Below, piece by piece: positions 21,921-63,802 of a DNA stretch of 64,000 nucleotides; position 1 is the first letter of the stretch, and the number at the start of each line of letters is the position of its first letter. The stretch is from Tamarix chinensis (Eukaryota > Streptophyta > Magnoliopsida > Caryophyllales > Tamaricaceae): positions 124,113,122 to 124,177,121 of the forward strand of contig CM060172.1 in NCBI GenBank assembly GCA_030549775.1, written 5' to 3'. The position numbers and the translations under genes are program-made. A model generated the notes under the pieces. The model made no database searches. It saw only the letters and a list, made by a program, of their open reading frames with translations, and was not told the DNA's origin.

Positions 21921-22289
21921 CACAACAAGAAAAGTAAGTTTGGGCGACGATTTTTATGATAATAGGGTGACATAATAGATTTTGTTGCCCTTGGTTCTAT
22001 TTTGGGCGACAAAAATATATGGTTGCCCTTGTTTTCTTTAGGGCAACAAATTTTTATAACGTTGCCCTTATTTTCTTTAGGGAAATAAACTTTTATAATT
22101 GTTGCCCTTTGTTATAGTGGAAAAATCTTTAGTGCACAAAAAGAGACTTAGGGCAACAAAATTTTCTTTTCATCGCCCTAAGTAAGGGCAACGAGCTTAT
22201 GGCGACAAAATTGTGACGAAATTGGGCGACAAATTTTTTTTCTTAGGCGACGAAATAATTTGTTGCCCAAAGTAATATTTCTTGTTGTT
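21921..22289. mobile_element. CACTA-like MITE (369 bp) inside P450 exon 2
   Basis: The left end reads CACAACAAGAAAAGTAAG and the right end, read inwards, AACAACAAGAAATATTAC, close to the CACTACAAGAAA terminus of plant CACTA elements. It is flanked by CTG at 21918-21920 and 22290-22292, a 3-bp duplication as expected for CACTA. Removing the element and one CTG restores continuous P450 reading (RDP then AWTNPHS), which confirms the boundaries. Internally it is a run of TTGCCCTTA / GGGCGACAAA-type subterminal repeats with no coding capacity. Confidence 0.9.
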
Positions 22290-23437
22290 CTGGGATCTCT
22301 ACCAATAGCCTATACATTAACTACAAGTTGTGCGCCCTTGGGTAATGTAAAGCCACAGACCTCGTGGTAGGAGCAATGGAACGGGTGGGTGAAGCTTCAA
22401 CATTTCTTTTAGGACTGCTCGAAAATATGGGAGTTTAGGAATTTCTGTTTCTTCAACTAGTTTCCCTTTGCCAATTGTTTTGTCTAATTCTTCTCGGACT
22501 TCTGATAGAATCATTGGATTGCGGAGGAGTTCTGACATTGCACATTCTATTGTTTTTGAAGTTGTGTCCATTCCTGCCCCAAACAAATCCTGTAATACAA
22601 ACATATAAATATACAAAAGTAGTAAGGTGCGGTTTCTATTAAATCATTTACGTTGAAGAGTGAACAGTCATGCAAATTTGCACCATTTAAAAATATTTAT
22701 GATCAATCCATAAGTAATTTCAGCAATTTAAATCTTTCTTTCTTTCTTTCTTCAGTCAACAAGGTTCGTAAAATCAATCGAGTATAACTTACCATTGAAA
22801 CCAATATACAAATCTCAAGAGATGAGACATTTTCTATTGGGACATGTTGCACCATATATGCCTCAACAACTACCTAAGATTTGACCTCACTGCTACAAAC
22901 CAAATCATATGGAAAAACTACTCGCAACTTTACCCTTATGTTTTTTCCTCTCTCCACAACAAAGGTTCATGAAAGAATTGGACATCTGGAATCCAAACTA
23001 TGAGCCAATTTTTTGGTTGAGAGTACGAGTCAATACCGGTTGTGCATTACGCATCATGCAACCAACTCACGTTACGCCAATGTTAATAAGTATTTTTTAG
23101 ATTAAGATAATTTTCACTAGGGTTATAATAAAAAAAATATTATAATATTTGTTGTATTATTACCTATAAATTAAATAGAAACCCATATCTTTTACCACTA
23201 TTGTCCATACCTATGACTACCCTAGTTTTGATCAATGATAAGTAAGAAATTAATATTTCACTATAAATGTATAGATTTTATCTATTACTATTATTCTACG
23301 TAAAAAATGATCGTTGACTACTAATATACTGATCTTTCAACACTAATAAACTAATTATTCACCATTGCTTTGATTTTTTACTATTATTCTACTTAAAGCT
23401 AATTTTACACTACTAATATACCGTTTTTCATCGATGA

Positions 23438-24977
23438 CACTACAATAAAAAGTGGCATAGGCCATGAAAATGGCCACGAGAGGGAAAAATTGGTAGCCAA
23501 AATTTATATACAAAGTATGAGATTGTGGTTTTGGTAAAAATAACCACAAAAAATTAAAAATTTAGTGGCTATATTTCCTTTGTTGCATAAAAAAAAATCC
23601 ATGACTAATTTGCCACAAAAAATTTATTTTTGTGATAAAGTGACCATGAATTTGCTATATAAAAATATTTTCATGATAAAATCATAAAAAAAAACTGTCA
23701 TTGAAAAACAATCATAGTATGAATTGCCACAAAAAATGTCCTTCTATGGCCAACCCACTACAAATTTGTCATGAAAGAAATACTTTTGTGGTTAAATTGC
23801 CATGAATTTGTCATGGGAAAAATAATTTCATGGCTATTTAGCACGAATTAGCTATCAAAAGATATTTTCGTGGCCAACTTGCCATGAACTATATATGGAA
23901 AGATATTTTTCATGGATGATTTGACACAAATGGGTCAGCCATGAAAAAATATTTTTGTGACTAAATTACTACAAATTTACAATATAAATATATTCTCATA
24001 GCTAATTTGCCTTGAAAGGATATTTTCGTGGCCAAATCATGAGTAAGCTATAGAAAGATATTTTTGTAAATAAATTATTATGAATTTACTATGGAAAGAT
24101 ATTTTTGTAGTTTACTCACCACAAATATGTTACAAAAAGATATTTCAATGGCTAATTTGCCACAAATGAATTTTTTTGGGCTTACTTGCCATGAATTTGA
24201 AATAAAAAATAATTTTGTGGCTAACTCATCTTAGATGTTGTACGAAAAAAATTATGTAGCAAAAGTCAATGCATTTTTACCTATAGCTCAAGAATAAAAT
24301 AAAAATATGGCCATAGTATGTATTAATTTGATCAGGTTTTTTTTAATACAAAAATGTATAATACATTACATTTTTATCCCAACATTTTGACTATTTTGAA
24401 CGAATAGTAAAATGAACTAATTATTAATTTGCATCATAGTTTAAAAGTATGTGATATATATATATATTCTATATTTTATTTTTTACTAATTTGAATAAAA
24501 AATAAAAATAAATAATTATTAGTTTGTGTCCTAGATTAAATGTGTATATAAATTATGGAGTAATAAATAATATATATACATACACAGACATCCAAACATA
24601 CATATCAACATACTATAATTATACTTACCTTAAAAAAATTAATACTATGGCTATAATAAAAAAAATATGATTTTAATTATAGGTCAAATGTGTAATTATA
24701 TAAAGAAATGTGTGACCATTTGAAAACTATATATATATATATATATATATGCAATATCTAATATAAATAATATATAATTAAGATAGATTTAAATGTTTGA
24801 TACACCTATTTATAAAACCAAAGGAAGTCAATTGTTAAAGAACTTCATAATTAAACGTGTTTGGCTTGAAATAGTTCAACAATGACTGACATTATGGGAA
24901 GTTTTGCAAAAACATGTTATAATTAATCATGATCGGTATTGGGATAAGGTCTACCCAAGGTAATAGGATGGGGTGGT

Positions 24978-25024
<47 letters not shown>

Positions 25025-25465
25025 TAATAATAATAATAATAATAATAATTATTATTATTATTATTAATTTCAATATGCACACCACGTTATTACTCGTGGT
25101 TATCATCACCACCACCATTGATATATGGGTCATGTGACTATTTATGACTATCGATACGTGCATCATGAGACTATGAGTGTCTATCATAACATGGTCACGG
25201 GACTATTTGTGGTTATTGACATGTGTGTCATGAGACTACTCACGACGATCGAGATATGAGTCAACAATTACTTGTGGTTAATTTTATCAATTGCATCAAA
25301 TCACTTTTTTAGTAGTTAACATTTTTGCCACGAGGTTATAGGACACAAGAGGTGACGCCTAAAATTTTTATGATAAAATATTTTAGCCACATAATTTTTA
25401 CTTATTAGCTACAAATGCTCTAGTTATTAGCCACGAAAAGTCTATGCGACAATTTATTATCAGTG
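23438..25465. mobile_element. Non-autonomous CACTA element (2.0 kb) in the P450 intron
   Basis: The left end is CACTACAATAAAAAGTGGC and the right end, read inwards, CACTGATAATAAATTGTCGC; both continue into a matching GCATAG. Many copies of a GCCACAAATTTG / GCCATGAATTTG-like motif fill the first 0.8 kb and recur at the right end, as in CACTA subterminal arrays. The flanking triplets TGA and AGA match at two of three bases. There is no transposase. It contains AT and AAT microsatellites (about 24730-24750 and 24978-25068). Confidence 0.8.
24978..25068. repeat. (AAT)n/(ATT)n microsatellite
   Basis: AAT repeats switch to ATT repeats and so can fold back on themselves. The poly-Ile and poly-Tyr frames predicted across them are artefacts. 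Confidence 0.95.
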
Positions 25466-26369
25466 AGATGAACTTACACCATTATTCTACTTAAAAATAT
25501 TTTTTTACCACTAATCAATTGACTTTTTGACAGCTAATTTACCGAGCTTTCACCACTAATGTATCGCTCGTTCACCAATGAGATAATTTTTTTTTACCAT
25601 TTTTCTATTTAAAATTAATCATTACTGTCTGTTGTTTTGATTTTCACCAATTTTTTTATTTAAAAAATATATTAATACAAATCTCTATTTATAAAACACA
25701 ATTTTTAAAAATTATTATGATAATTTTTGTATTTTTTTAATAAATCAAGATTAAAATAAATTAGTTAAAAGAAAAAAAAAATGAAGTCACACAACAATTT
25801 GCATGGTATGAATTGTGGTGAGGAAGTGAATACACACACACACACTCGCCTACCCGAAGAAAGTGCTGCACAGTACTTTCTTAGTTTCTAATTACACATT
25901 GACCCTCAAGATTGCCTTTTAGCAAGGAAGGTATATATATATAAACTTAATTTATTGCTAATGAATACTTTTGTAATTTGAGTGCTATATTCTTCGTAGT
26001 ATAATAGTAAATCAAAAATAAAGCGCCGTCATTTTTAGGGGATTAGTAAATATGCATATCAAATATAAAATATTATTACTTTAAACGAAGTATTTTGATC
26101 CATACAGCTTATTTTATTGCAAGTATGATTTATTAAGAAAGTTACTTCATATGTATCAAACAAGAGCCTTAACTTATAATATATCCCCCTAATTTAGGGC
26201 CGATTATAATTATTGGTTCGTTCACGTATTTGATAAGGGGAAAAAAATGAAGGGAGGGGGTGCATTCATGAGAATAAAACTGCTATTATCGATCAATGGT
26301 TAGATGAATTCAATACCAGCTAGCTAGATGAGAATTAATGATGCAAACTAATAAATCTAGTGAACTCAC
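25466..26369 (-). other. Remaining 5' part of the P450 intron
   Basis: AT-rich intronic DNA between the CACTA derivative and exon 1. Its only clear sub-feature is a short CA tract near 25833-25845. No gene is seen. Confidence 0.6.
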
Positions 26370-27341
26370 CAAAAGTAAATGCAGGATGCCGTCCCGATCA
26401 ATGCCGTCCCTTTGCTCTTCCAGTACACCAAGTAGCACGTCAAGAATATCGTTGTTGATATGGGAAGAATAATGATGAAGTACTTGGCCATCCCATAACT
26501 TTGATGATGATACTAATCTTGCGTGTATAATATCATTAAACAGCTTAAACAACTTTACGACGCGTGCGGTCAGACGATGCTTTATACGTTGTGGATCAAG
26601 AAATTTAAGGACTGGAAATAGGTCTGCCACATTAGGTTTGGTTGTTTCATCTATGATTTGATATATCAAATTTTCTATTTCCCTTGATTTCTCGTCATTA
26701 ATCCTATCGTTTTCAACAAAATCTCTAGAGAAGACGGTATTCAACATTATTTGAAAGAAAGTAGATTGAGCTGCCTGGCCGATGTCCACAGCAGCCCCAT
26801 TTTGGGAGCACTTATCGACATACGCCATAAGCTTAACGACCTTTTGACGACGAAAACCATGCATGGAATTAAGTTGTTTATCGCTTAAGAGTTGGCCACC
26901 GTAAATCTTTCTAAGGGCACGCCATTGAGGAGAAGATGAAGGAAGCGTAGCAATCGAGTATTTGTCATGCCGGTAAGCATGGGCGGTGTCTGAAACAAAT
27001 GGAGTAGAGAAGGAGAAGCCATTTTTCAAAAGGACATGTCTGGCTAGATCAGATGAGGAAATGACGATGGAGGTCATGGAACCAAGCCTGAGGGTCATTA
27101 TGGGGCCGTGAGCATTCTCAGCTAGCCTAGCTAAGCATCTGTGGGGTTGCCTCCTGTTCATGATTAATAGTAAGACATTACCCAGAACGGGCAAAGGAGA
27201 CGGTCCTGGTGGTAGGCAATATTTACCCTTTCTAGCGTATGAATTTACGAATGCAACAAGGGTCGAAAATAGTAGAACCACACATAATGATGATGACCAT
27301 GTGAGAATATTGTTAGAGATTTCCATTTTTCGGGATTGCAA
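26370..27341 (-). CDS. P450 pseudogene exon 1 (open, 324 codons)
   Basis: This exon encodes the N-terminal two thirds of a P450: hydrophobic anchor (about residues 12-35), proline hinge PPGPSPLPVLGN (about 43-54), WRALRK in the C-helix (about 140), and a C-terminal HLLL just before the donor. Two possible starts exist, Met1 at 27341 and Met6 at 27326. The second (MEISNN) is more like P450 N-termini. No disabling change is visible in this exon, unlike exon 2, so inactivation may be recent or a shortened product may be made. Confidence 0.85.
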
Positions 27342-27400
27342 TACTCTTTATTTGCATACGGTGAATTGTCGATGAGACTTTTCCGGTAGCAAGCTGTTGC

Positions 27401-43580: not shown

Positions 43581-46500
43581 TGTAATACCCCCAAAATTCA
43601 CTATTGAAAAAAATTTATTTTATTAAATAATTAGTGGAAGTGAAAATAAAAAAATTATGAATTCGAGGGATATTATTTCTAAACTTAGTACTAGATCGGT
43701 TCACTCCTACCATTCCAGTACTAAGTGTTAAGGGTAAAAGTGTAAAATACAATTTATGAGAACTCAAACCATAAATAAATTAAAGTAGCATAGTAAACCA
43801 TTTATAAGAATAAAATCTACCAGTAGTGGTTACGAGAACAGATATTACATTTAAACTAAGAATTTAAAAGAGAAAGAAGGAAACCCTAAAGCTTCAGATA
43901 ATTCCTTACACTCTTTCTCGTTGCCCACTTAAATAGTACTTGAAAAGGACACTACCCATTGAATAGGTAGGGGGCTCACGAAAGGAACCCTTCAGTACTA
44001 TGGTACTGAGTAACCTTTTAAAACATACTTGAAAGCAGGCCCGCAATGCAACACATGAAACAAAGCTATATACATATATAATAAGAAATGCATACACCAC
44101 AATCACATACTTAACAAGTCCATCAAATATTAATAAGTCATAATGTACAATCAATACTTCTGAGCCTTAAGCCATTAGTCCATCATTAATCAAACATCTC
44201 TAAGATTATATATCCATGTGAGTGCGGGAACCCAACTATTATAGTCGGTAGACCGGAATACATACAGGGCAAAATGCTCCTGACCACTATTATTACCGGT
44301 GGATTGGTCTCCAGGATAGAATGCTCCTGGCTACTATTATTCGCTGGTGGATCGGTCTGGCCCCACATGGTGTTCCACTATAAATGATTAGTGTTTTCCA
44401 TAATTTATTCACAACCAAATTAGATTTATTGAGCTCAGGACCCTCACTAGTATAGTAGGTGGACCGGAATATATATAAACATCATCCAGGGCAATACGCT
44501 CCTAGGCCACTATTATATCCGGTGGATTGGTACTCATAATCATCTTTTAGAACAAAATGCTCTTGAGCCACTATTATATCCACGCTTCTGGACCACTATT
44601 ATAACCGGTGGACTGATACTCATAATATAATTCAACTAGGTTCGGCTCATTAATTTTTCACTTTCTTGATTAGTATTTTTCCCTTCTCCATTATCATAGT
44701 TATCATTTTCCTCATCTACTTGCAAATTACCATTTTATCCTTTTACTTACAAAATTACCATTTTGCCCATTTACTTCCAAAATTACTATAATACCCTTTT
44801 ACTTACAATTTACCATTATGCCCTTAACTTCAAAAATTACCATAATACCCTTAACTTCAAAATTATCATTTTACCCCCTTTACTTCCAAGATTATCATTT
44901 TACCCTTTACTTCCAAGATTACCATTTTACCATTTACTTCAAAAATTACCATTTTACCATTTACTCCCAAAATTACAATTTTACCCTTTACTCCCAAAAT
45001 TGCCATTTTACCCTTTACTTACAAAATTACCATTTTATCCTTTTACTTATAAAGTCACCATTTTTCCCTTTACTTCCATAATTACCATTTTACTCTTTAT
45101 TTCCAAAATTATCATTTTGCCCTTTATTACACTACTTTTATTAAATTACCATCACTACATAAAATATTAATATCAATACTTCATTCTCATTATCCAACTC
45201 CACCAACTATTATATTTCTACATAATACTCATTAGCACCCATACATATTATGCCACACTCTTGCACAAGACATATTATTAAAATACTCCTAAGGCTCATG
45301 ATAATATTATTCATGGATCAATATATGGTCACAATAACATAATATAACATGGATAAACACTCAACATTTTCACTAATAACCAAACTCTTTCCTTAAGCAA
45401 TATTTCCACATATAGCATATAAACTAACATGCTTTTCTTTTTATCAATTAATATAAGCACCTACATATAATATATTAAAAAAATATATATCATACAAAAT
45501 AATATATTAAACTCTAATGTGCTAGCATACGTCTATCCATGCATTTAAGTAGGGTTGAACTATTACCTTAATTCCTACAAAATTAAACCTTACCGGTATC
45601 CCCCTTAAAGATTCAAGCCTTAATTAGTAAAACCAATACCTAAAAATAATACCCATAATTATCATATTAGAATCAGGAAAACTAAAAAGGATAAAACTTT
45701 ATAAAACTTAATTAATAACACACTTTACTCAGCCATTAATATACCTCAATAATTAAAAAAATAACTCCCAAAATAATTTGAAACTCATGTTACATAAGCA
45801 GCGTGAGCCACATGTAGGTTATAAGGGGGGAAAGGTTGAAGGTAGGGAGGTAGAAGGGAGGGGTGATGGTTCGGATTGGGGTCTTGGGGGCCAAGAGGAG
45901 GGCAGGTGGAGGAGGATTTAGGGCAAAGGAAGGGTGCAGAGATGAAGAGGGGTGCAGGTGGTGGTTGGGGATATGTTGTTGGCGACTAAGGGAGGCAGAG
46001 GCATCAGCGCCGAGGCTGCGAAGGGCACTGTTGAAGTGGGGGTGGCTAAGAAGGAAGGAAAAGGGAGGGGAAAAGTGAGGGGTTGCAAGGGTTGGTTTCA
46101 GCTAAAGGAGGTGTGGGGGTGGTAAGGGAGGTTGCCGAAAAGGGAGGAAAAGAAGAGGGGAGAAAGAAGGTGGGTTATAGGGGGCTCGAGGGGTGGTGTG
46201 GTGGTTTAGGGATGAAGTAGAAGGTGGTAGGAGGCAGCGCAAGTAGTTGGTGCAGTGGTGGAATCAGCGGATTTGGGCGACGGTGCAAGAATAGGGATAG
46301 AAATGGAAGGAGAAGAAAAGGAGAGAAAGAAGTCGGGAAGGGGAAGAAAGGCTAAAAAATATGGGGTAGAAAGGGCTGGTGATGAGATGAAAAAGGAGAG
46401 GGAGAGAGATGAGGGGATAGGTGGCTTAATAGGGTGGAAATAGGGTGGTAGGGTGGCAAGTAGGTGGCAGGAAGAGGAGAAGAAGAAGGGGAAAATCAGG

Positions 46501-49572: not shown

Positions 49573-49575
49573 TTA
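49573..49575. other. Target-site duplication, left copy (TTA)
   Basis: TTA directly before the left terminus, identical to 63800-63802. Confidence 0.9.
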
Positions 49576-49599
49576 CACAACAACAAAAGTTATTTTAGA

Positions 49600-50000
49600 C
49601 AACACATAAAAGACAACGGATTATAACTAACGTTGTTATAAAGTATAATTAACAACGGTTAATATTACACTACCGTTGTTAAATATCTAAAACTAGAAGC
49701 GCGGATTAATTTATTTTACTATTATAACGGTAAACTAGAGAAACAACAACGGGTCCGTGTGCCGTGGTGTATAAATAAAACGACAACGGTTATTTAGCAT
49801 AACCACAACGGCGTTTAAGCCGTCCTAAAATTATTAAACGACAACGGGTAATCTATATAACAACAACGGTTTAAAACCCGCTGTTGAAGATATAAATCAA
49901 CAACGGGTAAGGAATTTTCCACAACGGTTTTAAACCCGTTGTTGAAAGATAACTTACATCGGCTAACAACAACGGTGATTTATCCGTTCTGAGTTTCGTA
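49600..50000. repeat. Left subterminal repeat array
   Basis: More than a dozen copies in both orientations of a 9-10 bp motif around ACAACGGGT and AACGGTTT. In En/Spm-like elements such motifs bind the element-encoded TNPA-like protein. Here the array ends just before a GC-rich leader. Confidence 0.9.
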
Positions 50001-50039
50001 TATACTTCTCAGATTAATTTGTAACCGATCAATGATGGG

Positions 50040-50241
50040 TTTCTTTCCTACCTTGCGCGCGCAGTGAAAATCATCAAGTTTTAATTTCCTCCATCGCGCG
50101 CAACCTTCAACTGATCAGGACGTCGGTTCCAGAACGTCTGGCTTCGTCTTCCTTTCTCCATCATCTTGAAGCGCCCGTCGTCTTCCTCAAGCTATTGCGT
50201 TTCGTGGTTCTAGCTAGTCGAGATTCATTGTGCACACTGAG
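50040..50241 (+). promoter_or_regulatory. Probable promoter/leader exon of the transposase
   Basis: A GC-richer block with GCGCGC words (about 50055-50100) lies between the subterminal array and the transposase. It ends CACACTGAG followed by GTAATT, a plausible splice donor at 50242. A matching acceptor could be the TAG near 51270 just upstream of the first ATG. This is inferred from composition and splice-site likeness only. Confidence 0.45.
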
Positions 50242-51283
50242 GTAATTATCAGCTGTTACTACATTATATTCTTAATTTATTTTCCAGGCTTAATTAGTTA
50301 GGGTTTAATGAATCCGATTTGATATTGGTGTTTTGATTGGCCAAATTAGATTCGTTTACCTGCAATATGTGTTTGTTGTATAGATAATTCTAAGTTTATG
50401 TTTGTGCTGCTCGAATAACAGGGGCTTGGTCAGTGGTGGTTATTTGTTGGTAGCTGGTGCTTACATGAGACTTATTAATTGAAAAGTTCTAGTCACAAAT
50501 CCTAACCGATTGTGGTTGAGTCTTTTGTGTTACTTGAGTTATCTGCATTGAGCTTCTTAGAATTAGGTATGGGTTGAGGCTACCATTGGTTGGTTTAAGT
50601 TATGAAGGTACTAATAATAATTTCTTGGAAATGACATGAATTATTGCGTGTGATAGGAGTTGGTGGAGTTTATTCAATAAAGGATATTTGTGTAATAAAG
50701 ATAATTATTACAATGATTTTTACTCATAATATAATTGTAGTGGCATCTATTTGAGAACAACTATTTATTTTATTTGTATAAAAAATTCATTCTACTAATT
50801 TGTGTACTTTGTAGGAAAGTAGGAAAAATATTATTGTAATTACACTTTTACCATTACTGAAAAATAATAAAGAATTCAATGTATATAGAATTTAAAAAAA
50901 TGAAGGTAAAAAGTATGTTTTGATTTTTTTGGAATACAAAAGTATAATGGTCAAATGATGCCTGGTTCACAGCCCCTGTTACAGTGCTACCTTCAGCTTC
51001 ACCACTCTGGGCTTGGGAAGGATGTGCCCTATTCTGTTCATATAATTAGTTAGGTTTTAACCAAAATATTAATATGCACAGAACTATTAATTTCATACAA
51101 TTTATATAAACATAATACAAAGGGTTGTGCATTACAGGTTTGCAATGTAGGAAGATGATAATTCTCAGGTCTTTGAAAAATTTATATACGAGTGTTGAAG
51201 TTTAGCTTATTATATATTTTTATTAATGTTTAAGTGTATCATCTAACATCGTAATTATTATCCATATAGATTTTATTGCCAAT
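50242..51283 (+). other. Probable intron in the transposase leader
   Basis: AT-rich DNA with no coding features, bounded by a GT at 50242 and an AG near 51270. Confidence 0.4.
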
Positions 51284-54200
51284 ATGGATCGTTCTTGGAT
51301 GTCTGCTAATCGTTTATCTCGAGAATATGAAAATGGAGTTGAGGAATTTATTAGGTGTGCAGTTGCTCATGTTGGAAACTATAGTAGATTTGTCTGTCCC
51401 TGCCTAAGGTGTCGTTTTGTAAAGCGAGTTAATGAATCTGAAGCTAGAGATCATTTATTCTTATATGGGATTGATAAAAATTACACTAGATGGATATGGC
51501 ATGGTGAAACGGAACATGTGGGAGCTAATGTGGAAAGTCAGGAAAATATTTTTGGGATCAATGATGGGGATCGTTTAGAAGAAATGACTCATGCTGTTGA
51601 GCAAAGAGTTCGGGATTGTCCTCAAATGTTTGATAAGTTGGTGGGTGACTCTGAAACACCCCTATATAGTGGATGTACAAAGTTCACCAGATTATCTGCT
51701 ATTTTAAAGTTGTATAATTTGAAAGCATGTAATGGTTGGACCGATAAGAGTTTCATAGCCTTATTAGAACTTGTAAAAGATATGCTTCCAAATGATAATG
51801 TGCTCCCTAGTCGCACTTACGAGGCTAAAAAGGTCCTTTCCACTATAGGTATGGATTATGAGAAGATACATGCTTGCCCTCAAGATTGTGTCTTATATCG
51901 AAATGAATATACATCTCTTGAGAGTTGCCCCGAATGCCACACATCACGATATAAAAAGCCAGGGGTTCCAGCAAAGGTTATATGGTATTTTCCAATAATA
52001 CCAAGATTTAGGCGCATCTTCAATAATCCTAAAGATGCTAAAAACTTAACATGGCACGCTGATGGAAGATTAACTGATGGCTTACTAAGACATCCCGCAG
52101 ACTTTGCACAATGGAGAATGATTAATTATCGATTCCCCGACTTTGGAGAGGAACCAAGAAACCTATGATTAGCTCTTTCTGCGGATGGAATGAATCCACA
52201 TAATTCCGGAACCCATAGTACATGGCCTGTGATTTTGGTAATTTATAACCTGCCACCATGGCTATGCATGAAACGAAAATATATGCTATTATCTCTATTA
52301 ATATCGGGACCGAAACAACCGGGAAATGACATTGATGTATATTTGGCACCTCTTGTTGAGGATTTGAGGTTGTTGTGGGATGAGGGTGTTGAATTATTTG
52401 ATTCACATCGTGAAGAGAGTTTCAACTTAAGGGCAATGTTGTTTTGTACTATCAATGATTTTCCTGCATATGGAAATTTATCTAGATATGGTGTGAAAGG
52501 ACATTATGCATGTCCTATATGTGGAGAATATACATCCTTTTGTCAATTGAAGCATGGGAAGAAGACCGTTTATCTCGGACACAGAAGATTTTTGCCAATG
52601 AACCATCCTTATCGTAGGCAAAGAAAAGCTTTTAATGGAAAACCTGAATTCCTAGGAGCTCCAGAACCATTGAGTGGCCGACAAATACTTGATAGAATAA
52701 ATGGTTTGAATGTTAAGTTTGGGAAGAAGAATAAAGCCTCAATTCCTACTAGTAGATGGAAGAAACGATCAATATTCTTTGATCTTCCATATTGGGAACA
52801 TTTATATATAAGACATTGTCTTGATGTAATGCATATTGAAAAGAATATATGTGATAATATGATTGGTACGTTACTTAATGTGCCATGGAAGACAAAAGAT
52901 GGCATCAATGCAAGACGAGACATGGTTGAGATGGGTATTCGAAGGGAATTAGCACCACAAAGGAATGGGAATCGTACTTATTTGCCACCAGCGTGTTATA
53001 CCCTTTCAAGAAAGGAGAAAATTGATTTTTGTGAGTGCTTAAAAGGAGTTAAAGTTCCAGAAGGGTTTTCCTCAAATATTAGTAACCTTGTTTCAATGAC
53101 AGATTTGAAATTGGTGGGTACGAAATCGCATGACTGTCATGTTTTGATGCAGCAACTGTTGCCGATCGCTATTCGTTCCGTACTTCCGAAACGTGTTAGA
53201 AATGCAATTACTAAGATTTGTTTTTTCTTCAAGGCATTGTGCTCTAAGGCTATTGAACCTGAAAAGTTAGATGTACTACAGAGAGATATTGTCATCATCA
53301 TGTGTCAACTTGAGATGTATTTTCCGCCTTCTTTCTTTGATTGCATGGTTCATTTGACCGTGCACTTGGTTAGGGAGGTGAAATTGTGCGGTCCCATCTA
53401 TATGCATTGGATGTACCCATTTGAGCGATTTATGAAAATATTAAAAGGGTATGTACGGAATCCATATCGACCAGAGGGGTGTATTGCGGAGAGCTACATA
53501 GTTGAGGAAGCTATTGAATTTTGCACCAATTATTTATCCAATGCTCATGCAATAGGAATTCCTAAATCTCGACATGATGGAAAAAGTGAAGGTGTGGGTA
53601 TGATGGGTAATAAGTTGATACGCATAGAGCGTGATATGTGGCAAAAAGTACACTTGTATGTTCTTCATAATACCGAAGAAGTTCAACCATATATAGAAGA
53701 ACATATGAGAATGTTACGTACTAAAAACCCATCTAGGAATGAAAAGTGGATACTAGAGCAGCATAATATATCTTTCATTGAATGGTTTTGTGATCACATT
53801 CCTCGTCAAATGACACACTCATCAAGTACTATTTCTGATACATTGAAATGGTTATCCCAAGGGCCTCGTATGGAAGTATCATCTTTCACAAGCTACTTGA
53901 TCAATGGGTATACTTTCTACACTAAGTCCCAAGATGAAAAGAGTACCATGCAGAATAGTGGGGTGACTTTGGTTGCTGAAGCATTACATATTGCTAGTGC
54001 GAAAGATAAAAATCCTATGTATGGGAATATGTCATATTATGGTGTAATCCAACAAATATGGGAGTTGAATTATACTTTCTTCACAGTTCCTGTTTTTAGT
54101 TGCATTTGGGTTGACAACAATAATGGGATTGAAGTTGATGAGTTAGGGTTCACTCTTGTTTATCTTAATAAGTTGGGCCATAAACATGATCCTTTTATAT

Positions 54201-54628
54201 TGGCATCACAAGCAAGACAAGTATTTTATATCACCGATCCTCTTGATAAGAGGAGATCTGTGGTTTTAACCACAAAGAGTAGAAATGTGCATGAAGATGA
54301 TGATTTCAATGATTCTATTTTTCAACAAGAGGCAACCTTCTCTATTATAAGAACGTCATTTTCTCGGGGTGATGACATTGATCCCAATAAAGAGGATACA
54401 TATTTGCGGCATGATCACTCTGAAGGATCATGGATTGCAGAAGAAGATACAAGTGAAAAATCACAAAAGAGAAAATCTCGTAATTCTAAGTACGAACCTT
54501 TATTTTTTTTAAGTATAACGGTGCCATATAATATTTTTTCCTCGTATAATTTGATTTACCTAAACACATTATATGATGACAAAATATTTCTCTTTTCAGA
54601 GCAAGGAGGAGATAGAAGCACAAGTTGA
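51284..54628 (+). pseudogene. TNP2-type CACTA transposase, one in-frame nonsense codon
   Basis: TNP2 (TNPD-like) is the enzyme that cuts and moves CACTA elements. The first part (51284-52168, 294 aa) starts MDRSWMSANRLSREYENGV, the Transpos_assoc N-terminal domain with a C-P-C-x-x-C motif near residue 46, and runs into the Transposase_21/TNP2 domain. After a TGA at 52166-52168 the same frame continues to 54628. That part contains YACPICGEYT, the TNP2 hallmark LDVMHIEKNICDNMIGTLL, a DUF4218-like region (HLTVHLVREVKLCGPIYMHW) and a DUF4216-like region (FSCIWVDNNNGIEVDELGFT). The context PRNL-stop-LALSADGMN suggests an Arg CGA turned into TGA. The last ~45 codons are probably intronic (donor near 54496, acceptor near 54600). 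No other disabling change is seen. Confidence 0.93.
52166..52168 (+). other. Premature TGA in the transposase
   Basis: The reading frame before and after is the same and both sides match TNP2 without a gap, so a single substitution is the simplest cause. CGA to TGA is a typical result of cytosine methylation and deamination. Confidence 0.88.
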
Positions 54629-55525
54629 GATATTACCCAATAGAGGCGTTGATGCTTGTTCTAGTATTTGGTATGTCTTTTTACCTTATTTTAATTGCTA
54701 ACTTCTTGAAATAAAAAGCTACTTAATCCTTTTATTGAATCCTTTATCATTTTCATCATTTTTCTTATACTATGTGTTTTAGAGACATGGCTTGTGATGA
54801 TGGAGATGCTTCAACTAGTGGAGGTGCTTTGACCCATGGCTCTCGTAAAAAAAGGGGGCCTACTGCATTGCAACAGGTGGCGATGAAACGATTACGAAAT
54901 GAAAAATTTAGTTTGGAATGGAACATGAGGGGGCAGACTATTTGTGCAAATGGTAAGCTATTATCTACATACATAGGAGAGTGTGCACGTAATCATGTGC
55001 CTATTAGCTATGAAACGTGGGATGAAGTACCAGTAGAAAAAAAAAAGAAATTGCATGGGAAGAAATATCGGTAAGTTGATTTACCTTAAAAAAATAAATT
55101 TAATGTTTTGTATGATTATTATACTATGACTATGATTTTGTGTAATCTGGTAGGCTGTTTTCGACATCCCTATTTATCGAAAGAAGGCAATTATTGTTCG
55201 AGTTACAAAAGCATGGAGGCAATTTAAGTCCACTTTGGGAAGAAATTTCATTTATAAGGATGATGGCACTATCCGAAAAGAGCCACCAGAAAACTATCGA
55301 ATTTTACAATCAGATTGGGATATTTTTCTAAGGAAAAAGCAGACTAATGAATATAAGGTATAATTGTATAAAACATGTATTCTTCATATCTATTTTGTTT
55401 ATATATCACTATAATTTGGATTATTATCACAAGAAAAAAGTGGAGCAATGCGAGAGCTAGCTTTGAAGAATATATACCATCACAACTTGTCTCGTAAGGG
55501 ATATGTTGGTCTCGAGCAAGAAATT

Positions 55526-56433
55526 GTAAGTGAAATTAAGAAACTTTTCTGATACATTTTATTATATCTATACTTTAAATTCTAATATTTTTTTACCTTT
55601 TCAATAAATTCACCAGTCCTCTTAATCATGACCATTAAAACCTAAATGTAAAGAATGGAGACCTTCCATGGTACAGAACTAGGATTTCAAAAACTAGAGT
55701 TGCCATTATATTCTTCAGTAGGTTGGCTTATTCCTTACATATTGATTGATTCCTAGTCACTTTCTTTGTTAACTTTCTGAGGCTGCAAACAGCTTGTACA
55801 TCCAAATCAAAGTTCTATGAACTTTGAACCTGGAGAAATTTTTTCTACCTAACTTAATTTTTTGATGGCCCTGAGTTCTTACACACATAATGAAAGCACA
55901 GCATTATATCACAGAACTAGGATACAGACCTTTCTTTTTCTTTTATTTTTTAATAGAGGAGAAGAAAAGCAAAAACTACCATATGGAAGATAAGGTATCC
56001 TTTAACAATAACAAGAAATTGAAAATGGAAACAGAAACCATTATCAGAATTATATTCTTGGGTTGTTGAGATGGGTTGTTGAGATGGCCCTTCCAAAATC
56101 CTTTTCCTTGCTGTTTGTGAGACCTATACTAGTATGTGTTTTATTGTATTCTTTTTCCAAGTAATTTAACACCATCCTAATGAGCTTAAGCATAGTGATT
56201 GTGCAGTTGTTACTGATTAAATATGCTCCCATGCCTTCCTGAAATGATTCTTCATTGGTTTTTGAATGTTAAAGCTCACCCTAAATGCTCTCATAAATAA
56301 CAAATCTTACATTAGGCATTGAAGTTTTTTGCTTATAACTGGTGCTGAAATTCTAAGTGCTGAAATGGACAAGTTTGCAAATTGCTAATTCTCTGGCTTC
56401 CCTTTTACTATTTTACCTTTTCAATAAATGTAG
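55526..56433 (+). other. Large (~0.9 kb) intron of the ULP1-type gene
   Basis: A GTAAG donor at 55526 and a TAG acceptor at 56431-56433. It is the longest intron of the gene by far. The phrase TTTTTACCTTTTCAATAAAT occurs near its 5' end and again, nearly identical, at its 3' end, so it may hold an inserted or duplicated segment of about 0.8 kb. Confidence 0.6.
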
Positions 56434-58026
56434 ATTGCAAAGAGAGGTTTGGATCCTAAAACCACTATAATAGATAGACATGTCTTATGGAAGGATGCAA
56501 GGGTCCCTAAAGATGGTACTATCACGAATGAAGCTATTAAGGAAGTAGTTGAGAAAATTGTAAGTTCTTGTTATTATATTCATTTATAAGTTTCAATTAG
56601 CCTTATCACATGTTTTGAAATATAACTCTTAGGTTTTGGTATTTGATAGAATGCATTGGAAACTTCCGAGACCAGTGAAACATTTGCATCACCTGCTAAT
56701 GATTTGCTAACTAAGGCATTGGGAACGGCCGAACATCCGGGTCGTGTTAGGACTGGTGGAGCGGGAGTTACATTGAGAGATTATTTACGCTCACAAGATG
56801 CATCTCAAACAACTTCTATGTATGAGAATATGATAGCTCGGATAAAGGAGGGGATGAAGGAAGAAATAATGAAAGAGACACAAGAGAAGATGGAAAATAA
56901 GTTGCAGGAGTGGTGGCTTAAGATTGATGTTCTCTTATCCAACAAGGGTAAGGAAGTAATTCACACGCCAGAGATGACCTCTACACCTAGTGTCAAGGGT
57001 AGTTGTTCAGATGCACGTTTTGTTGATCTACCAGAGGTATATGTCTACCTTTTATATTGAAATTTCTATAATATTATTTTATTAGATACCATACAAATAA
57101 ACTCATAGCTTTTTATATGGCATGATTCATATTCTTATTCTTTTGACTAGCATAATAGATAAGCCAAAATAATCTCTCATTATCATTATATAGATAAGAT
57201 AAATGATTTGTGTCTAATTTTATAGGGGGAGATACCGTGTTTGTTATTGGTAAGTAACCCAAATCGACTAGTGGCAATAGGAAGAGTATGTATACGCCAT
57301 GGAATTGAAACTGTCATGCTACACAATAAACCTTTGGATGACAAGTATATGAAAGTTGTTGTTGAGGTTTCTTTGGATGATGATGCTCCATTGCCTGTGC
57401 CAAATGATGAAGCTGGTATGTATAAAGTCCAGCATGCACTCTCCTCTTACGTTGCATGGCCTAAAGCTCTAGTAGATCTCAATGTTGAGGTAAGTATTAA
57501 TTAATATTTCAAATAAATTATTTTTAGATCATGCTAATATGGCTTCTCATGTATTATTTTTTGTGATGGTTGTACTATAAAGCGTACACCACACCTTAAT
57601 CAGGATACACTACACCCTAATCAGATTGAACCACAACCTTCACAACATAAAAAACCTTTACCAACTAAGAAGAAAAGGGTAAATGCTATGAAACCTGTTT
57701 CTAAGTCAGCAAAGGGTCAGCCTAAGCCACAATTCTCAAGTTCTATCACTTTGGGGAAAAAGTGCATCAACTTGAGGATGTTGAAAGGTTATGTCGATGG
57801 AATGGAATTTTCAGATTCGATCATAATTCCATGTCCTAAAGCAGTTATGTTCCATGAATATGATATTCTGATCGATCGTGAATGTATCAATATAGTTCAT
57901 AATAGAGGCAAAGTTGATAACTCAATTATGGAAGCATATAACAAGTGAGTATCATGAATTAATTGTATATAATTTAATATGTTTAATTATGTATGTATTG
58001 TCACATGTTAATATATTTCTATACAG

Positions 58027-58936
58027 GATAATATTTGAAAAGTGTGAGCGTGATGGGATATCTATTGTTGGGCTATTGTGTCCAAATATGATTTCGAGTT
58101 ATAATGACAAACTACAGGATCGAGCACGATATCTAGCAGATGTTTTTTGTGCACATCCTCAAAAGAAATTATTTTTTGCTCCATACGTTCAAAAGTAAGA
58201 ATTTAAATTTATGTAATATATTAATGAAATTTTTTTTTATTACTAAACATGTAATCTCTTGAATTGCAGGGATCATTGGATACTTTTTATAGTTTATCCT
58301 TCATGCCAAATGTGTTATTGGCTCGACTCTATGCATGGTCCTGTATATGATGAAGTCATACAAATTGTGAATATGTAAGATGTTTGAAATTCCAAGTATC
58401 TATTTATGTATACATATAGTTTCAGTTATGTTTTATATAACCTACATTTCATATGATATACTATTCTTTTATGTTGGAGCAGGGCTATGAGAATGTATCA
58501 GGCTAATAAAGGGTTTAGGACAACAAGTGTAATAAAGTGGGAGATAGTTGATGAGGTATTAACTAATTGGAGTCTAAAGTAATATATTATTTCTATTATG
58601 AAAATGATATCATATTATGCAAGTTTCTTATACTCTAATGTATTTTATTTTGACTCATAGTGTCCTAACCAGCCAAATGGGATAGATTGTGGATATTATG
58701 TCATGAGGTTCATGAAAGAGATTGTATCTGAGATGAAAACCCAACCTCAAATTCCAAAGAAAGTAAGTTTATTCTTTGAAGCTGTAAAGAATTCTTACTC
58801 ATGGATATTAACTAAAAAAATGTGAATTAATTTTGCAGTATTATCCGTTATATGGTGGTCGATGTTACACAATGAAGAAATTGATGAAGTTCGAGAGGAA
58901 TGGGCCTCCATGGTTATTACTCATTTGAATACGTAG
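58027..58936 (+). CDS. Ulp1/C48 cysteine protease domain exons
   Basis: Ulp1-family enzymes cut SUMO from its targets. The His-Asp-Gln-Cys set is in the expected order across three exons: DHWILF (about 58271), WLDSMH (about 58320), CPNQPNGIDCGYY (58661-58699). Intron phases agree through exons 7 to 12. The closing motif of the family (EEIDEVREEWA-like) is present, but one base out of frame after a deletion near 58870. The loss lies beyond the catalytic cysteine, so catalytic function might survive. Confidence 0.85.
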
Positions 58937-59512
58937 CAGGTAAAGATATGATAGAAAAATGCAAAAGCAGATGATGGCATCCTTTTTGTGCCACTTTCTT
59001 GATATATTTTTTGTCTACTATCATGAAGAAAAATGAGCTGATTTGTTTAGTTTCTTATGATTGTCCTTGTTCCTTGATATAAATATTAAGAATAATAATA
59101 ATAGTATTAGGAGGGCATTTTGGTGTTCTAATTAGAAACACTGAATTAATTGACGAGGAAACTGATAGATATCATCCACTTATTAGAACAGTTGCTGGAA
59201 TAGAATGTGGCTTATGTTTTATTTTATGTGAGGTGAAGTTAGCTAATTTTATTTGATTCCGTTGTTTGGTTTTGAATGTGTCATGAAGCCAATTGTTAAC
59301 TATTAATAGGGATGAAAAGCCATACAATTTAGGCATGAGTCAGAATTGCTGGGGCACAATTGCTCAATACTCGCTTTGTAGGATGCATTTGTTGAAAGTA
59401 TTGACCCCTTGATTTGATGCATTTTAGCTGCTTACATGTGTGTGCTTTTTTGAGTGTTGAGATTTGAGTTTTTGGCCTGATTTTTCATTGCCTGTTCTGA
59501 TTGATATATCAG

Positions 59513-60735
59513 CACAATGTATATTGTGGAGAGGTTTTCTGGGGATGCTGAGAAAATAGCTCCTTTTGCTGCCAAGTTTGAGCATCGACTATTTATGGAG
59601 GCCATGTCCAAGGTAGCTCCCTTTCATATGCATTTAAAACTTGAGATCTTTACCAAGCTTTCAGTGGGTGATCACTATCTCTTCCTTGGGATGTAGGACC
59701 TTAAGATGACTGTAATTTGTTGAGGTCCCCTTTATCCTCCATAGTTTTTTTCTTTCTTTTTATGTAAAATTGGCACCCTACATGTGGCATATTTTCATCT
59801 TGTAAATATAAATTATTTATTGAGCTTTATTGTTAATTGAGTATGCTGCTTCCTTGATAATTTCAGGAGGAGTACATGAACCAGCATACGTTTTCTTCTA
59901 GGATGCAGAATATGATCAGCTATGAGTATCATACTAAATATGCTTTGCCAGTGAATCCTGGTTCTGACTATTTCAGAGCTACAAGTGCTGCCTGTAGTCC
60001 ATTGACCACCAATGGTCAACAATGTTGCTTGCCATGTTCCTCATTGAACTCCATGACTGGTAAATTTAATTATTACATTTTGGTTTTCTACTTTAATGAT
60101 TCTCTTGTTTACTCTATTGCTGTATCTCATTATTTGCCAATCATTTGATGACAGGTTCACAGAAGAGTGCATGCAGTCAAGGAGCTGGTGTTTTTCCGGA
60201 GGGGAGGAATCAAAGACTTGAAAATATTTCACCATCCAAATCTAACGAACTTTCCATATGTCAAATCGGTTCTGCAAGGGAGGGTTTCTCTGATCAGCCT
60301 TTGAATACTGGTTCTGATTGTTCCAGAGCTACCAGTGTTGCCTGTAATCTGGTGAACACTGATAGTCTGCAATGTTGCTTGCCAGGTTCCTCTTTGAAGT
60401 CCATGGCTGGTAAATCGAATTATTGTATTTTGCTTTTCCATGACATACTTGATTACTTTATTCTAGTGTCCCCTTATTTGACAATTATTTGATCACAGGA
60501 GCAAAAAACAGTGAGTATAGACTAGAAGTTGGCAAGTCATGGACTGGGAGGAAGCGAAAACATGACATTATTTCACCATCTAATGAGCAGTTCATAACTG
60601 GTAAATGCTCTAAGTGGCAAGATATTTCTGATATTCAACCTGTTGATAGTGGGCCTACATTTTCTGGAAGCATTTTACGTTATGAGTCTGAGCCATCAGA
60701 TGGTGGTCCTATAGAATCACAATATGTGGTTGAAG
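59513..60735 (+). pseudogene. Captured host gene fragment with KIX-like (MED15-like) domain
   Basis: Four exons with GT-AG borders and matching phases: 59513-59612, 59867-60059, 60155-60409 and 60499-60735. The start reads KIAPFAAKFEHRLFMEAMSK then EEYMN, which fits the second half of a KIX domain (pattern IAxxFExxIxxxA...Y). KIX domains of MED15-like coactivators bind transcription activators. Later exons are Ser/Gly-rich without a known domain. Exons 2 and 3 share GSDxxRATSxAC and QCCLP-SSL-SM with similar introns, indicating a tandem duplication. The N-terminal part of any host protein is missing. The KIX call is by pattern only. Confidence 0.6.
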
Positions 60736-61077
60736 GTATGATTTCTTGTTGATGATAACACACTGAAGTACTAGATCTTGATTGCACATGACACATGCTT
60801 GATTCATTATATGGATGCATACTTAATTCTCAAAGATAAATAGAATTTGTTTGCTGTAAAAAAATATAAATAGTATTCATTTTGTGAACGAATGGCAAAG
60901 ATGAATTTGATCCATAGTTTGTAACAGAATCCAGAGTTCTTACAAATACATAAATGATATTTTACTGCATATTATTAACAAAATCAAACAACCATCTATA
61001 ATGGCCACAATTGTAATGCCTTTGAAAAAATAGACACAATTATACTAGAGCTGGTAAAAGTTGCCCCGACCTATTTT

Positions 61078-61191
61078 GAGTGAAACCAACCCTCCAAAAC
61101 CAGTGTTTGCTCTTGCTGCTCAGTGTTTGGCTCCTTCTAGTTCTGAGGTGACTGAAAGGATAGAGAGTATACAAAAGCATATGGCTGCAGG
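61078..61191 (+). pseudogene. Possible further exon of a captured gene
   Basis: A stretch ending EVTERIESIQKHMAAG before a GTATAT donor reads like a coding exon. The source gene is not recognised. It may continue the KIX-like fragment, since the donor is followed by AT-rich DNA resembling the introns there. Confidence 0.3.
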
Positions 61192-61743
61192 TATATCACC
61201 TTCCTATATGATGTTTCTTCTCCTTGAATTGTATGATCTCTGGATTATCTGTTTGATTACTGTGTCACCTTATCTTATTATGTGTGTGACTATCAGATAT
61301 GTATTTTGACATTTCTTTTGTTTTTAACTATTGAAGACTGTAGTGCAATTCTTGATAGGGGCATTGCAAAACGATGACCCTGGCAAAATAGACAACCATA
61401 TCAAATCAACCAGCTTCGTCCATCACGAAGGAATATGTCTGGTGACACAGATGTGGACCACAAATAGCACGTACTAGAAGGCAGTGAACACCGAAAACAA
61501 ACTGTCACAACGGAAATTTTCAAAAGAAGCCCTCTAAACAACCAAGAATGGTGCAAGGGCTTTAACCAGGAATTGATTGCTATCTACAACAACAGAACAC
61601 CAAATGAAGGTCAGACATCCTAGCTCACCGCATTTAAGCACATGTTGCTTGCTAGCTTATATTCTATGGTGCTGTGTTGGCCCTTTTATAAATTGGCCTT
61701 GAGTACCAATACACCAAAGCAAAAAATAAAAGGAATGCATTAC

Positions 61744-62079
61744 CTTCTCTCCCGCTGCAAGAAGAAATCCAGCCAGATTATAGGCATAGCCAACGCAGTG
61801 TGTGCCAATGGGGCTTTGTAAGCTTCCCATGGTATCATAGATTGCCATGCTTGGAGTCAGCTACAAAATGAGCGGATCCTTAGGATAAATAGCCAATAAG
61901 GCAGAAAAACAAAAAGTACCAGTGTCCCACAGAAATCTCACATCTCCACCAGGACCGTTGATATACATATACAACCTCTTGGACGAATCAATACTGTCTA
62001 AATACAACATTGTGGCTAGTATCTGATTGCTGAATTCTTCATCTATGTGTTGTCCAATGAAGATGACACGTTCACGATA
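61744..62079 (-). pseudogene. CLPR2: Captured CLPR2 fragment (plastid Clp protease subunit), antisense
   Basis: CLPR2 is a non-proteolytic subunit of the chloroplast Clp core. Two exons lie on minus: 62079-61942 (46 codons) with [19 protein letters not shown] and [10 protein letters not shown], and 61860-61744 (39 codons) with LTPSMAIYDTM and THCVGYAYNLAGFLLAAGEK. The intron between them (61941-61861) has intact GT and AG. An acceptor CAG precedes exon 1 and a GTAATG donor follows exon 2. Introns are retained, so capture was from genomic DNA, not from mRNA. No stops interrupt these exons. The chloroplast transit peptide and the C-terminal half are missing. Confidence 0.9.
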
Positions 62080-62719
62080 CTGCACAGACATAGAAACAAC
62101 TTCAGAATGATACCAGAAAAGGGAGAATGCAAAGCCTCCCAGGGAAGGCAAGCATTTGAACATGCAGACCCATCGAAAGATCTTAGTAGAGTCAGGGGCA
62201 TGAAATTGCAATATAAGCTACTAGCCATGTCCTTGATCAAACAGATCCATGTTTACTCTCCCCCCCCCTCTTCAAAATGACCTGAGGAGGGTGTCCTTGA
62301 CTGTTGATCCAGCTGAGCTTCTGGGGTTCATTTTCAAGGAAAATAGCTCAAGTCTAAAGAATTTTAATACATTATGCTAGTAATATATGCATACCAGCAC
62401 CACAAAGTCAGAAATGTCATCCTTTAGTATAGTGATAACTATGAAGTGCAGGATAATTGAACTAAGAGAAAAGTACAGATTAACAAATTTCAGAAGTATT
62501 AGGAAAGAAAACATAAAATAGACAACTTAAACAAAAATAATGACTGAAAATAGGCCACAAAGTGGTTGCTGCTGTGTTGATTAAATGCCTCAGGACCCTT
62601 GTTGATTCAAGATATTGAATGCTTGAATAAATTTTACCTTGGATAAGGGCTCTTGATGTGTGCTTAGAACAATAGCCAATTCATCACAATTTTCCTCACT
62701 TGGGTTTTATTTCCTTGCA

Positions 62720-62886
62720 GATAATTTTGAGCAGGTTGGGATTTGGGGCATGGACTTGACATTCTTCCCCATCATAGAACACTGTTATATGCTGAGAAAC
62801 ATAGGTGGTGAAACTATTGCTGGATTCAGGTTCAAAAGATGGAACAACTTTGTGTGGTTAAGGATCTACCAGCACATGAAATTGTG
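62720..62886 (+). pseudogene. Unrecognised exon-like frame near the right end
   Basis: After a CAG acceptor (near 62719) an open frame reads NFEQVGIWGMDLTFFPIIEH and ends QHMKL-stop. Codon use and the acceptor suggest a captured or element exon, but no family is recognised. Confidence 0.35.
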
Positions 62887-63129
62887 ATTTATGTGTAGTC
62901 TTATTTTATATATCTATATATCAAGTTTAGGTTGTATATAATTGATTGTGAATATAACATGTTTTGGATATCGTATGGATTGTATATAGATGGTTTTGGA
63001 TATAATGAAGCAGGTTCATGTTATATATAACCGATTGCGTATAAAGTAGGTTCAGGTTGAATGAAACCGATTGCGTACAAAGCATGTTCAGGTTGAAAAT
63101 ACAAACGTATATATAGCGGGTTTTGAATA

Positions 63130-63785
63130 TAACATCAACAACGGTTAAGCACTCGTTGTTGATGTTATAAAACAGCGTGTAATGTCTAAAACCACAACGG
63201 TTATATACCCGATATTTAACTTCTTATTAACAACGGGTTATTACCCGTTCTGGAAATATAAAGGCAGCGGGTAACTATACTATTCGACAACGGCTATATA
63301 GAAAATTAACAACGGGTGTTTACCGTTGTCGTTATTATTAAACAACGGATCTATATAAAATTAACAACGGGTTTTTAACCGTTGTTGTTCTTATTAGACA
63401 ACGGATATGGATAATATTAACAACAGATGTTTAACCGTTGTTGTTATTATTAGACAACGGGTATCTGTAATATTAACAACGGGTATTTACCCGTTGTCTT
63501 TAGAATTCAACAACGGATATCTTGAATATTAACAACGGGTGTTTAACCGTTGTGTTTAATATTCAACAACGGATATATGGAATATTTACAACGGGTGCCT
63601 AACCGGCGTGGTTGTAATTCAACAACGGATATGTTGAAGATCAACAACGGGTATTTAACTGTTGTCTGAGAAATTCAACAACGGTGACTGGAACCGTTGT
63701 CTTTGAATTCTATTAAAGACATCGCATACATTTATAACGGACGTTACGCGTTGTAGGTTATATAAGTAACCGTTGTCTTTGATAG
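63130..63785. repeat. Right subterminal repeat array
   Basis: Several dozen copies of ACAACGGGT, ACCGTTGT and ACAACGGAT-type motifs. Often a plus copy is followed within ~20 bp by its inverse (ACAACGGGTxxTTAACCGTTGT), giving many potential small hairpins. It is denser than the left array. Confidence 0.92.
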
Positions 63786-63799
63786 TTTATGTTGTTGTG

Positions 63800-63802
63800 T
63801 TA
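63800..63802. other. Target-site duplication, right copy (TTA)
   Basis: TTA directly after the right terminus TGTTGTTGTG. Confidence 0.9.

What the first reader, a model, noticed from the sequence alone, without database searches (positions are those of the whole stretch)
49576..63799. Complete 14.2 kb CACTA element ending in CACAACAACA with a perfect TTA duplication
The termini are inverted copies (CACAACAACA at both ends) flanked by identical TTA. Subterminal arrays, TNP2 and a second gene all lie inside. Plant CACTA elements classically start CACTA or CACTG; here position 4 is A at both ends, so the variant is shared by the two ends and is probably a family trait rather than one mutation.
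Basis: partly seen in the sequence, partly recalled or inferred. Interest (0 to 1): 0.75.

Follow-up and report, generated by a model that had tools for sequence, protein, structure and literature searches.

The report
CACAA-ended gene-carrying plant jumping gene
This is a 14 kb plant DNA transposon of the CACTA type whose ends read CACAA instead of CACTA, a change shared by nearly all sister copies found, and it carries a copied piece of a chloroplast-protease gene in an internal slot that holds other gene pieces in other copies.

Summary
Confirmed and extended. The 14,224-bp element at 49576-63799 has imperfect 28-bp inverted ends (22 of 28), TTA on both sides, and ACAACGG arrays (36 of 40 window copies). 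In the host genome (1.32 Gb) CACAACAACAAAAGTTA occurs 31 times, its reversed control 0. Freeing base 4 gives 31 A and 5 T left ends, only one T being a family member; right ends are A in 42 of 42. 27 of 32 left ends pair with a right end; 24 of 27 have matching 3-bp flanks. So CACAA is a family trait. The element encodes TNP2, with one in-frame TGA, and a TNP1/Ulp1-type gene. New: window 61332-62538 is a 1.2-kb copy of host CLPR2, introns kept, 97.9% identical to the gene on contig C1, joined with 6- and 3-bp overlaps. At least 5 of 27 copies carry it; others hold xanthine-dehydrogenase-like (8) or tRNA-synthetase-like (1 seen) pieces in the same region. Filed as a CACTA-superfamily family with variant ends and a gene-capture bay. 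The empty site could not be tested.

The parts
49573..49575 (.). target-site duplication TTA, left copy
49576..49603 (+). left 28-bp terminal inverted repeat, begins CACAACAACA
   Evidence: 22 of 28 positions match the right end; shared by 20 fetched copies picked by their first 17 bases
49613..49975 (.). left subterminal array of ACAACGG motifs, mostly direct
   Evidence: 12 of the 40 window copies
51284..54490 (+). TNP2 transposase gene, one in-frame TGA at 52166-52168
   Evidence: PF13963, PF02992, PF13960, PF13952; 60-62% identity over the whole length of two relatives, P0001 and P0003; stop seen
56650..58900 (+). second gene, TNP1-like (weak PF03017) with Ulp1-type C48 peptidase domain; exon limits not determined, end approximate
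   Evidence: PF03017 at 19.2 bits, below its 21-bit cut-off; PF02902 E 8.9e-11 on joined predicted exons; frames
59030..62535 (.). variable cargo bay; other copies leave the window sequence after 59029, 59076 or 59132 and rejoin at 62536
61105..61340 (.). 236-bp cargo segment shared with L053 and L060, in which no CLPR2 was found
   Evidence: 98.7-99.6% identity; CLPR2 hits
61332..62538 (-). captured genomic fragment of host CLPR2: exons 62079-61942, 61860-61744, 61379-61335 with introns
   Evidence: one 1213-column block, 97.9% to G000:C1:148709756-148710968; splice contexts; best protein hit Heliosperma pusillum, 97%
61335..61340 (.). 6-bp overlap (AGACTG) of donor and pre-existing cargo at capture junction
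62536..62538 (.). 3-bp overlap (AAT) of donor and right module at capture junction
63138..63776 (.). right subterminal array, ACAACGG on both strands, 56-bp period in 63281-63666
   Evidence: 24 of the 40 window copies; period
63772..63799 (-). right 28-bp terminal inverted repeat, begins CACAACAACA
   Evidence: 42 right ends found by exact pattern
63800..63802 (.). target-site duplication TTA, right copy

Best explanation
A member of a multi-copy family of CACTA (En/Spm) superfamily DNA transposons whose terminal motif reads CACAA in place of CACTA. TNP2 is expected to cut at CACAA ends and a TNP1-like protein to bind the ACAACGG arrays; insertion makes a 3-bp duplication (the duplications are shown by the copies; the protein steps are inferred from homology). 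This copy's own TNP2 is interrupted by a stop, so it would need TNP2 from a sister copy (inferred). Just inside the right end lies a bay that holds different host DNA in different copies. In this lineage 1.2 kb of nuclear CLPR2, matching a gene on C1, was copied in with its introns through short overlaps at both ends, as expected of template-switching repair of a gap left by excision (inferred), and the loaded element now sits at five or more places.
For: 31 exact left ends, 0 in control; A at base 4 in 31 of 32 family left ends and 42 of 42 right ends; 27 paired copies of 3.1-23.9 kb; matching 3-bp flanks in 24 of 27; unrelated left flanks in 21 copies; TNP2 domains and Ulp1 domain; CLPR2 in at least 5 of 27 paired copies and a host gene with six matches covering residues 58-285 in order and without stops at C1:148709512-148711425; donor identity 97.9% in one block; junction overlaps of 6 and 3 bp; XDH-like segment in 8 of 27 copies (4 read in full, 4 by 300-bp probes) and a threonyl/alanyl-tRNA-synthetase SAD piece in L046.
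Against: No transposition was observed and no empty site examined. 3 of 27 paired copies lack matching 3-bp flanks. The end counts need exact matches in the other 16 or 18 letters, so diverged ends with another base 4 would be missed. The PF03017 match is below its cut-off. The 15 unpaired right ends were not read. The control of the left pattern with base 4 free gave 14 matches, so pattern hits alone do not prove membership.
Confidence: 0.9

Rival explanations
1. A is not a working family trait but a hitchhiker: one mutated master copy spread, mobilised in trans by CACTA-ended relatives whose transposase tolerates A.
For: The single T copy (L075) shows both end types in one element with GGG/GGG flanks. 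17 near-full TNP2 sequences (window and 16 copies) differ by at most 6.0%, so a recent single ancestor is possible.
Against: The same A is at both ends, which differ at 6 of 28 positions elsewhere, and 19 of 20 fetched CACAA-ended copies carry at least part of the family's own TNP2.
Confidence: 0.3
2. Cargo was taken up by the hybrid-element route described for Pack-CACTA: two neighbouring insertions with complementary deletions enclose chromosomal DNA and move as one.
For: This mechanism is described in passages of a review and a survey (PMC13317346; PMC8903248).
Against: The CLPR2 fragment joins to a cargo segment present in copies in which no CLPR2 was found (61105-61340), both joins have short overlaps, and the 2.3 kb read at the donor gene match the window in the captured block only.
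Confidence: 0.2
3. Bay differences are mainly losses from one large ancestral element that once held all the gene pieces.
For: Copies share patches in various combinations and carry internal deletions.
Against: The window bay, shared by the two other CLPR2 copies read, has no match to the XDH-like segment, and CLPR2 stands where five other copies share a different sequence at the right join. Two of the five CLPR2 copies were not read in full.
Confidence: 0.15

Closest known systems
CACTA (En/Spm) superfamily elements with TNP2 and a C48 peptidase domain, e.g. Jozin of Chenopodium (PMC8978399; outline, passages, sections 7 and 9 seen)
   Same: TNP2 with matching domains, 28-bp ends, subterminal arrays, 3-bp duplications, C48 domain in the second ORF region of some elements, captured gene fragments
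   Different: Jozin ends are CACTAGTAGAAAA type (13-17 of 28 positions shared with ours); fragments there lie 5' of the transposase, here in a bay near the right end
Tpn1 family of Ipomoea nil (PMC5105172, passages seen)
   Same: 28-bp ends, mostly 3-bp duplications, internal sequence replaced by captured host sequences
   Different: Nearly all Tpn1 copies lack transposase genes; here 19 of 20 fetched copies keep at least part of TNP2
Pack-CACTA (PMC8903248, passages seen; Arabidopsis TIR query CACTACAA)
   Same: CACTA-type ends carrying captured gene pieces; CACAACAA differs from CACTACAA only at base 4
   Different: Pack elements are non-autonomous and lack transposase; this element retains a TNP2 gene and the second gene
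Tgmt* of soybean (PMC2613891, passages seen)
   Same: Large element with tnp2 and TNP1 functions, 3-bp duplication, asymmetric subterminal repeats
   Different: 13-bp CACTA ends, one large gene, no host-gene bay described in the passages seen

Membership tests
CACTA (En/Spm) superfamily | TNP2 transposase (Transposase_21) with TAD, DUF4218, DUF4216 | tested here: met
CACTA (En/Spm) superfamily | 3-bp target-site duplication | tested here: met
   24 of 27 paired copies
CACTA (En/Spm) superfamily | Short terminal inverted repeats (10-28 bp) | tested here: met
   22 of 28 positions; range from PMC7139988 passage
CACTA (En/Spm) superfamily | Subterminal arrays of short direct and inverted repeats | tested here: met
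   CACAA at both ends here, in 31 of 32 family left ends and 42 of 42 right ends. Filing rests on the transposase and the other features; the ends make it a variant
CACTA (En/Spm) superfamily | Second ORF for a subterminal-binding protein (TNP1/TNPA) | tested here: inconclusive
   PF03017 19.2 bits against a cut-off of 21; C48 domain clear
CACTA (En/Spm) superfamily | Cut-and-paste movement catalysed by TNP2 | not testable with these tools
   no expression or excision data
Pack-CACTA | Carries captured host gene sequence | tested here: met
   CLPR2
Pack-CACTA | Non-autonomous, without a transposase gene | tested here: not met
   TNP2 gene present though interrupted
Tpn1 family | Tpn1 terminal and subterminal sequences | not tested
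   the Tpn1 letters were not in the passages seen

The most novel reading that the evidence does not exclude
The family's transposase has shifted its end preference from CACTA to CACAA, and the element works as a gene-shuffling vehicle: a bay near its right end is repeatedly overwritten with host exons by microhomology-led copying while the transposition genes are kept, so each loaded copy spreads a new exon set.
Probability: 0.35. Interest if true: 0.65.

Novelty: new variant of a known kind. Interest (0 to 1): 0.45.

Why it matters
[quoted passage not shown] A near-fixed base change at both ends makes end recognition by TNP2 testable. A series of loaded and unloaded copies, with the donor gene still in the genome and junctions read to the base, bears on how cut-and-paste elements acquire host genes.

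Tried and rejected
Chance similarity of ends: rejected by genome copies. Ends alone as proof: weak, 4 of 300 shuffles reach it. Five CACTACAACAAAAGTTA hits as relatives: 4 of 5 rejected, no ACAACGG motif in about 380 bp. The 36 viral contigs stretches with the 17-mer were not studied; I take them as chance. A captured KIX domain at 59505-59696: not accepted, E 0.02 and below cut-off. ORFs 59861-60148, 60100-60492, 60453-60752, 61058-61309 and 62657-62887: no Pfam family. Donor of window 59133-61104 not found, because the search did not complete. Paper searches aimed at CACAA-ended or otherwise unusual CACTA ends: held nothing, held two papers (the Silene one opened in passages, where CACAA is part of probe sequences; the other a cloning method by its title), of 99 papers and 55 only 20 and 15 were listed, and I saw no described CACAA-ended family in what I read; none of the papers was opened. 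Subscription journals are not held. Catoni 2019 was not held.

Full report
Observation. CACAACAACA stands at 49576-49585 on + and 63790-63799 on -, the only two exact copies in the window (0.07 expected), with TTA on both outer sides. The first 28 positions of the two ends match at 22. Of 40 ACAACGG motifs in the window 36 lie in two blocks just inside the ends, 12 left and 24 right; part of the right block has a 56-bp period. A shuffle test of the end pair with a 3-bp duplication alone is only moderate: 4 of 300 shuffles reach 10 bp or more.

Genes. TNP2 runs from 51284 to 54490 with all four usual domains and 60-62% identity to two full-length relatives. One in-frame TGA at 52166-52168 splits it. 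Of 20 fetched copies 19 hold at least part of TNP2; 18 of them cover the stop site, where 17 have a residue and one (L052) has a stop; one of the 19 has a single unbroken match over all 1069 codons. The second gene, about 56650-58900, matches PF03017 below its cut-off and the Ulp1-type peptidase PF02902 at E 8.9e-11 on joined predicted exons. C48 domains in ORF2 are described for some CACTA elements of Chenopodium and other plants (PMC8978399 section 7).

Host. The window lies in a 1.32-Gb genome of 28 contigs. The captured CLPR2 piece is nearest to Heliosperma pusillum, 97%, of Caryophyllaceae, Sileneae; a P450 at 26310-27347 is nearest to spinach, beet and quinoa proteins, 44-45%. A caryophyllaceous plant is likely; this is inference.

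Family. CACAACAACAAAAGTTA occurs 31 times, its backward control 0. With base 4 free there are 36 sites, 31 A and 5 T, control 14. Of the five T sites one (L075) has 10 subterminal motifs and four have none. So 31 of 32 family left ends have A. This counts all 31 A sites as family: 21 were read with their arrays (the window and 20 fetched copies), 7 more were read only as 31-bp end pieces with a partner end, and 3 were not read (C8:90479742, C10:30670544, C10:73229221; no partner end). For right ends, CACNACAACATAAACTATC gives 42 sites, all A, control 1; 27 of them pair with a left end and 15 were neither paired nor read. Together 73 of 74. L075 has CACTA left, CACAA right and GGG on both sides. 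These counts require exact matches elsewhere in the pattern.

Insertions. 27 of 32 left ends have a right end in the proper orientation within 30 kb; lengths run from 3,117 to 23,936 bp. Ten copies were read at both ends first (window; L055 and L064; L050, L052, L053, L054, L060, L063; L075) and all ten have matching 3-bp flanks; of the other 17, 14 match. The three misses are L046, L059 and L061. The 200-bp left flanks of the window copy and 20 fetched copies show no similarity to one another. Blocks shared with the window copy are mostly 91-99% identical (lower, 87-88%, in part of the right array of L052); 17 near-full TNP2 sequences differ by a median of 3.1% and at most 6.0%.

Bay. Six copies (L046, L050, L053, L057, L058, L061) follow the window copy up to 59029, L051 to 59076, and L060 and L062 to 59132; six (L046, L050, L052, L053, L060, L064) rejoin it at 62536. 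In between they differ. The window copy, L054 and L063 share the whole bay at 99%. L050, L053, L060 and L064 share a 1.3-1.6-kb segment with an exon that, taken from L050, matches the [2Fe-2S] family PF01799 (E 9.2e-28) and is closest to xanthine dehydrogenase/oxidase in the PDB; in L064 the DNA is shared but the frame is disturbed. Four more copies match the segment into this exon's ORF in 300-bp probes (L051, L058, L062, C8:65907608), 8 of 27; L056 and L046 share only its first 220-260 bp as far as seen. L046 holds a threonyl/alanyl-tRNA synthetase SAD piece (PF07973). L060 holds gypsy integrase and zf-RVT pieces. Sixteen copies were probed; two probes (L103, L107) matched no bay read, three (L109, L112, L116) only 39-43 bp.

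CLPR2. Six matches in order, covering residues 58-285 of 285 without stops, mark a host CLPR2 gene at C1:148709512-148711425; five element copies (window, C4:38778, C7:85655, C9:34076, C12:20984) carry its middle exons, all among the 27; the search says its counts are lower bounds. Donor and window align as one 1213-column block, 97.9%, 20 mismatches, window 61332-62538, antisense to TNP2; the three exons match in 299 of 300 bases, so most differences lie outside them. Introns are kept, so the copy came from DNA, not mRNA. At 61335-61340 donor and the older cargo seen in L053 and L060 share AGACTG; at 62536-62538 donor and right module share AAT. Overlaps of this kind fit repair by template switching; that step is inferred.

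Against known systems. Passages seen describe CACTA ends as CACTA/TAGTG with 10-28-bp TIRs (PMC7139988), Chenopodium ends as CACTAGTAGAAAA type and the Arabidopsis search motif as CACTACAA (PMC8903248), from which this family's CACAACAA differs at base 4 only. Capture of host genes with preserved ends is described for Tpn1 (PMC5105172) and in Chenopodium. Thus mechanism and superfamily are known; the near-fixed CACAA ends and the recurrent bay beside retained transposition genes are what seems new. I saw no CACAA-ended family in the searches, in an open-licence library only and with partly listed results.

Not settled. No empty site was examined. The origin of 59133-61104 is unknown (searches unanswered). 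Whether A at base 4 reflects changed transposase preference or spread of one tolerated variant cannot be told from sequence.

Noticed in passing
L075, G000:C5:110587636-110602709: Only family copy found with CACTA at the left end; its right end is CACAA and flanks are GGG/GGG. Ancestral state, reversion or tolerance cannot be told.
   Followed up: partly
window 59947-60088 and 60297-60438: A 142-bp sequence repeated at 350-bp spacing (81%) inside the bay, with a second pair at 60202 and 60546; perhaps duplicated exons of an unidentified gene.
   Followed up: partly
window 59505-59696: Short ORF with a sub-threshold KIX_2 match (E 0.02); may be a second captured gene piece.
   Followed up: partly
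L046 with its extension L067, G000:C1 near 130938-130944 kb: tRNA-synthetase SAD piece carried in the same bay of a copy without matching 3-bp flanks.
   Followed up: partly
G000, 15 right ends listed: Right ends without a left partner matching the left pattern; could be truncated copies or copies with diverged left ends.
   Followed up: no
element positions 6268-6780 in L056 and L060: About 500 bp downstream of TNP2 is repeated in tandem in these copies (overlapping BLAST blocks).
   Followed up: no
window 21665-27347 (-): Cytochrome P450-like pieces: N-terminal part at 26310-27347 and, by eye only, a heme-binding part at 21665-22111, about 4 kb apart; a long-intron gene or a remnant.
   Followed up: partly
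window 44698-45153: Tandem array of a 27-bp unit.
   Followed up: no
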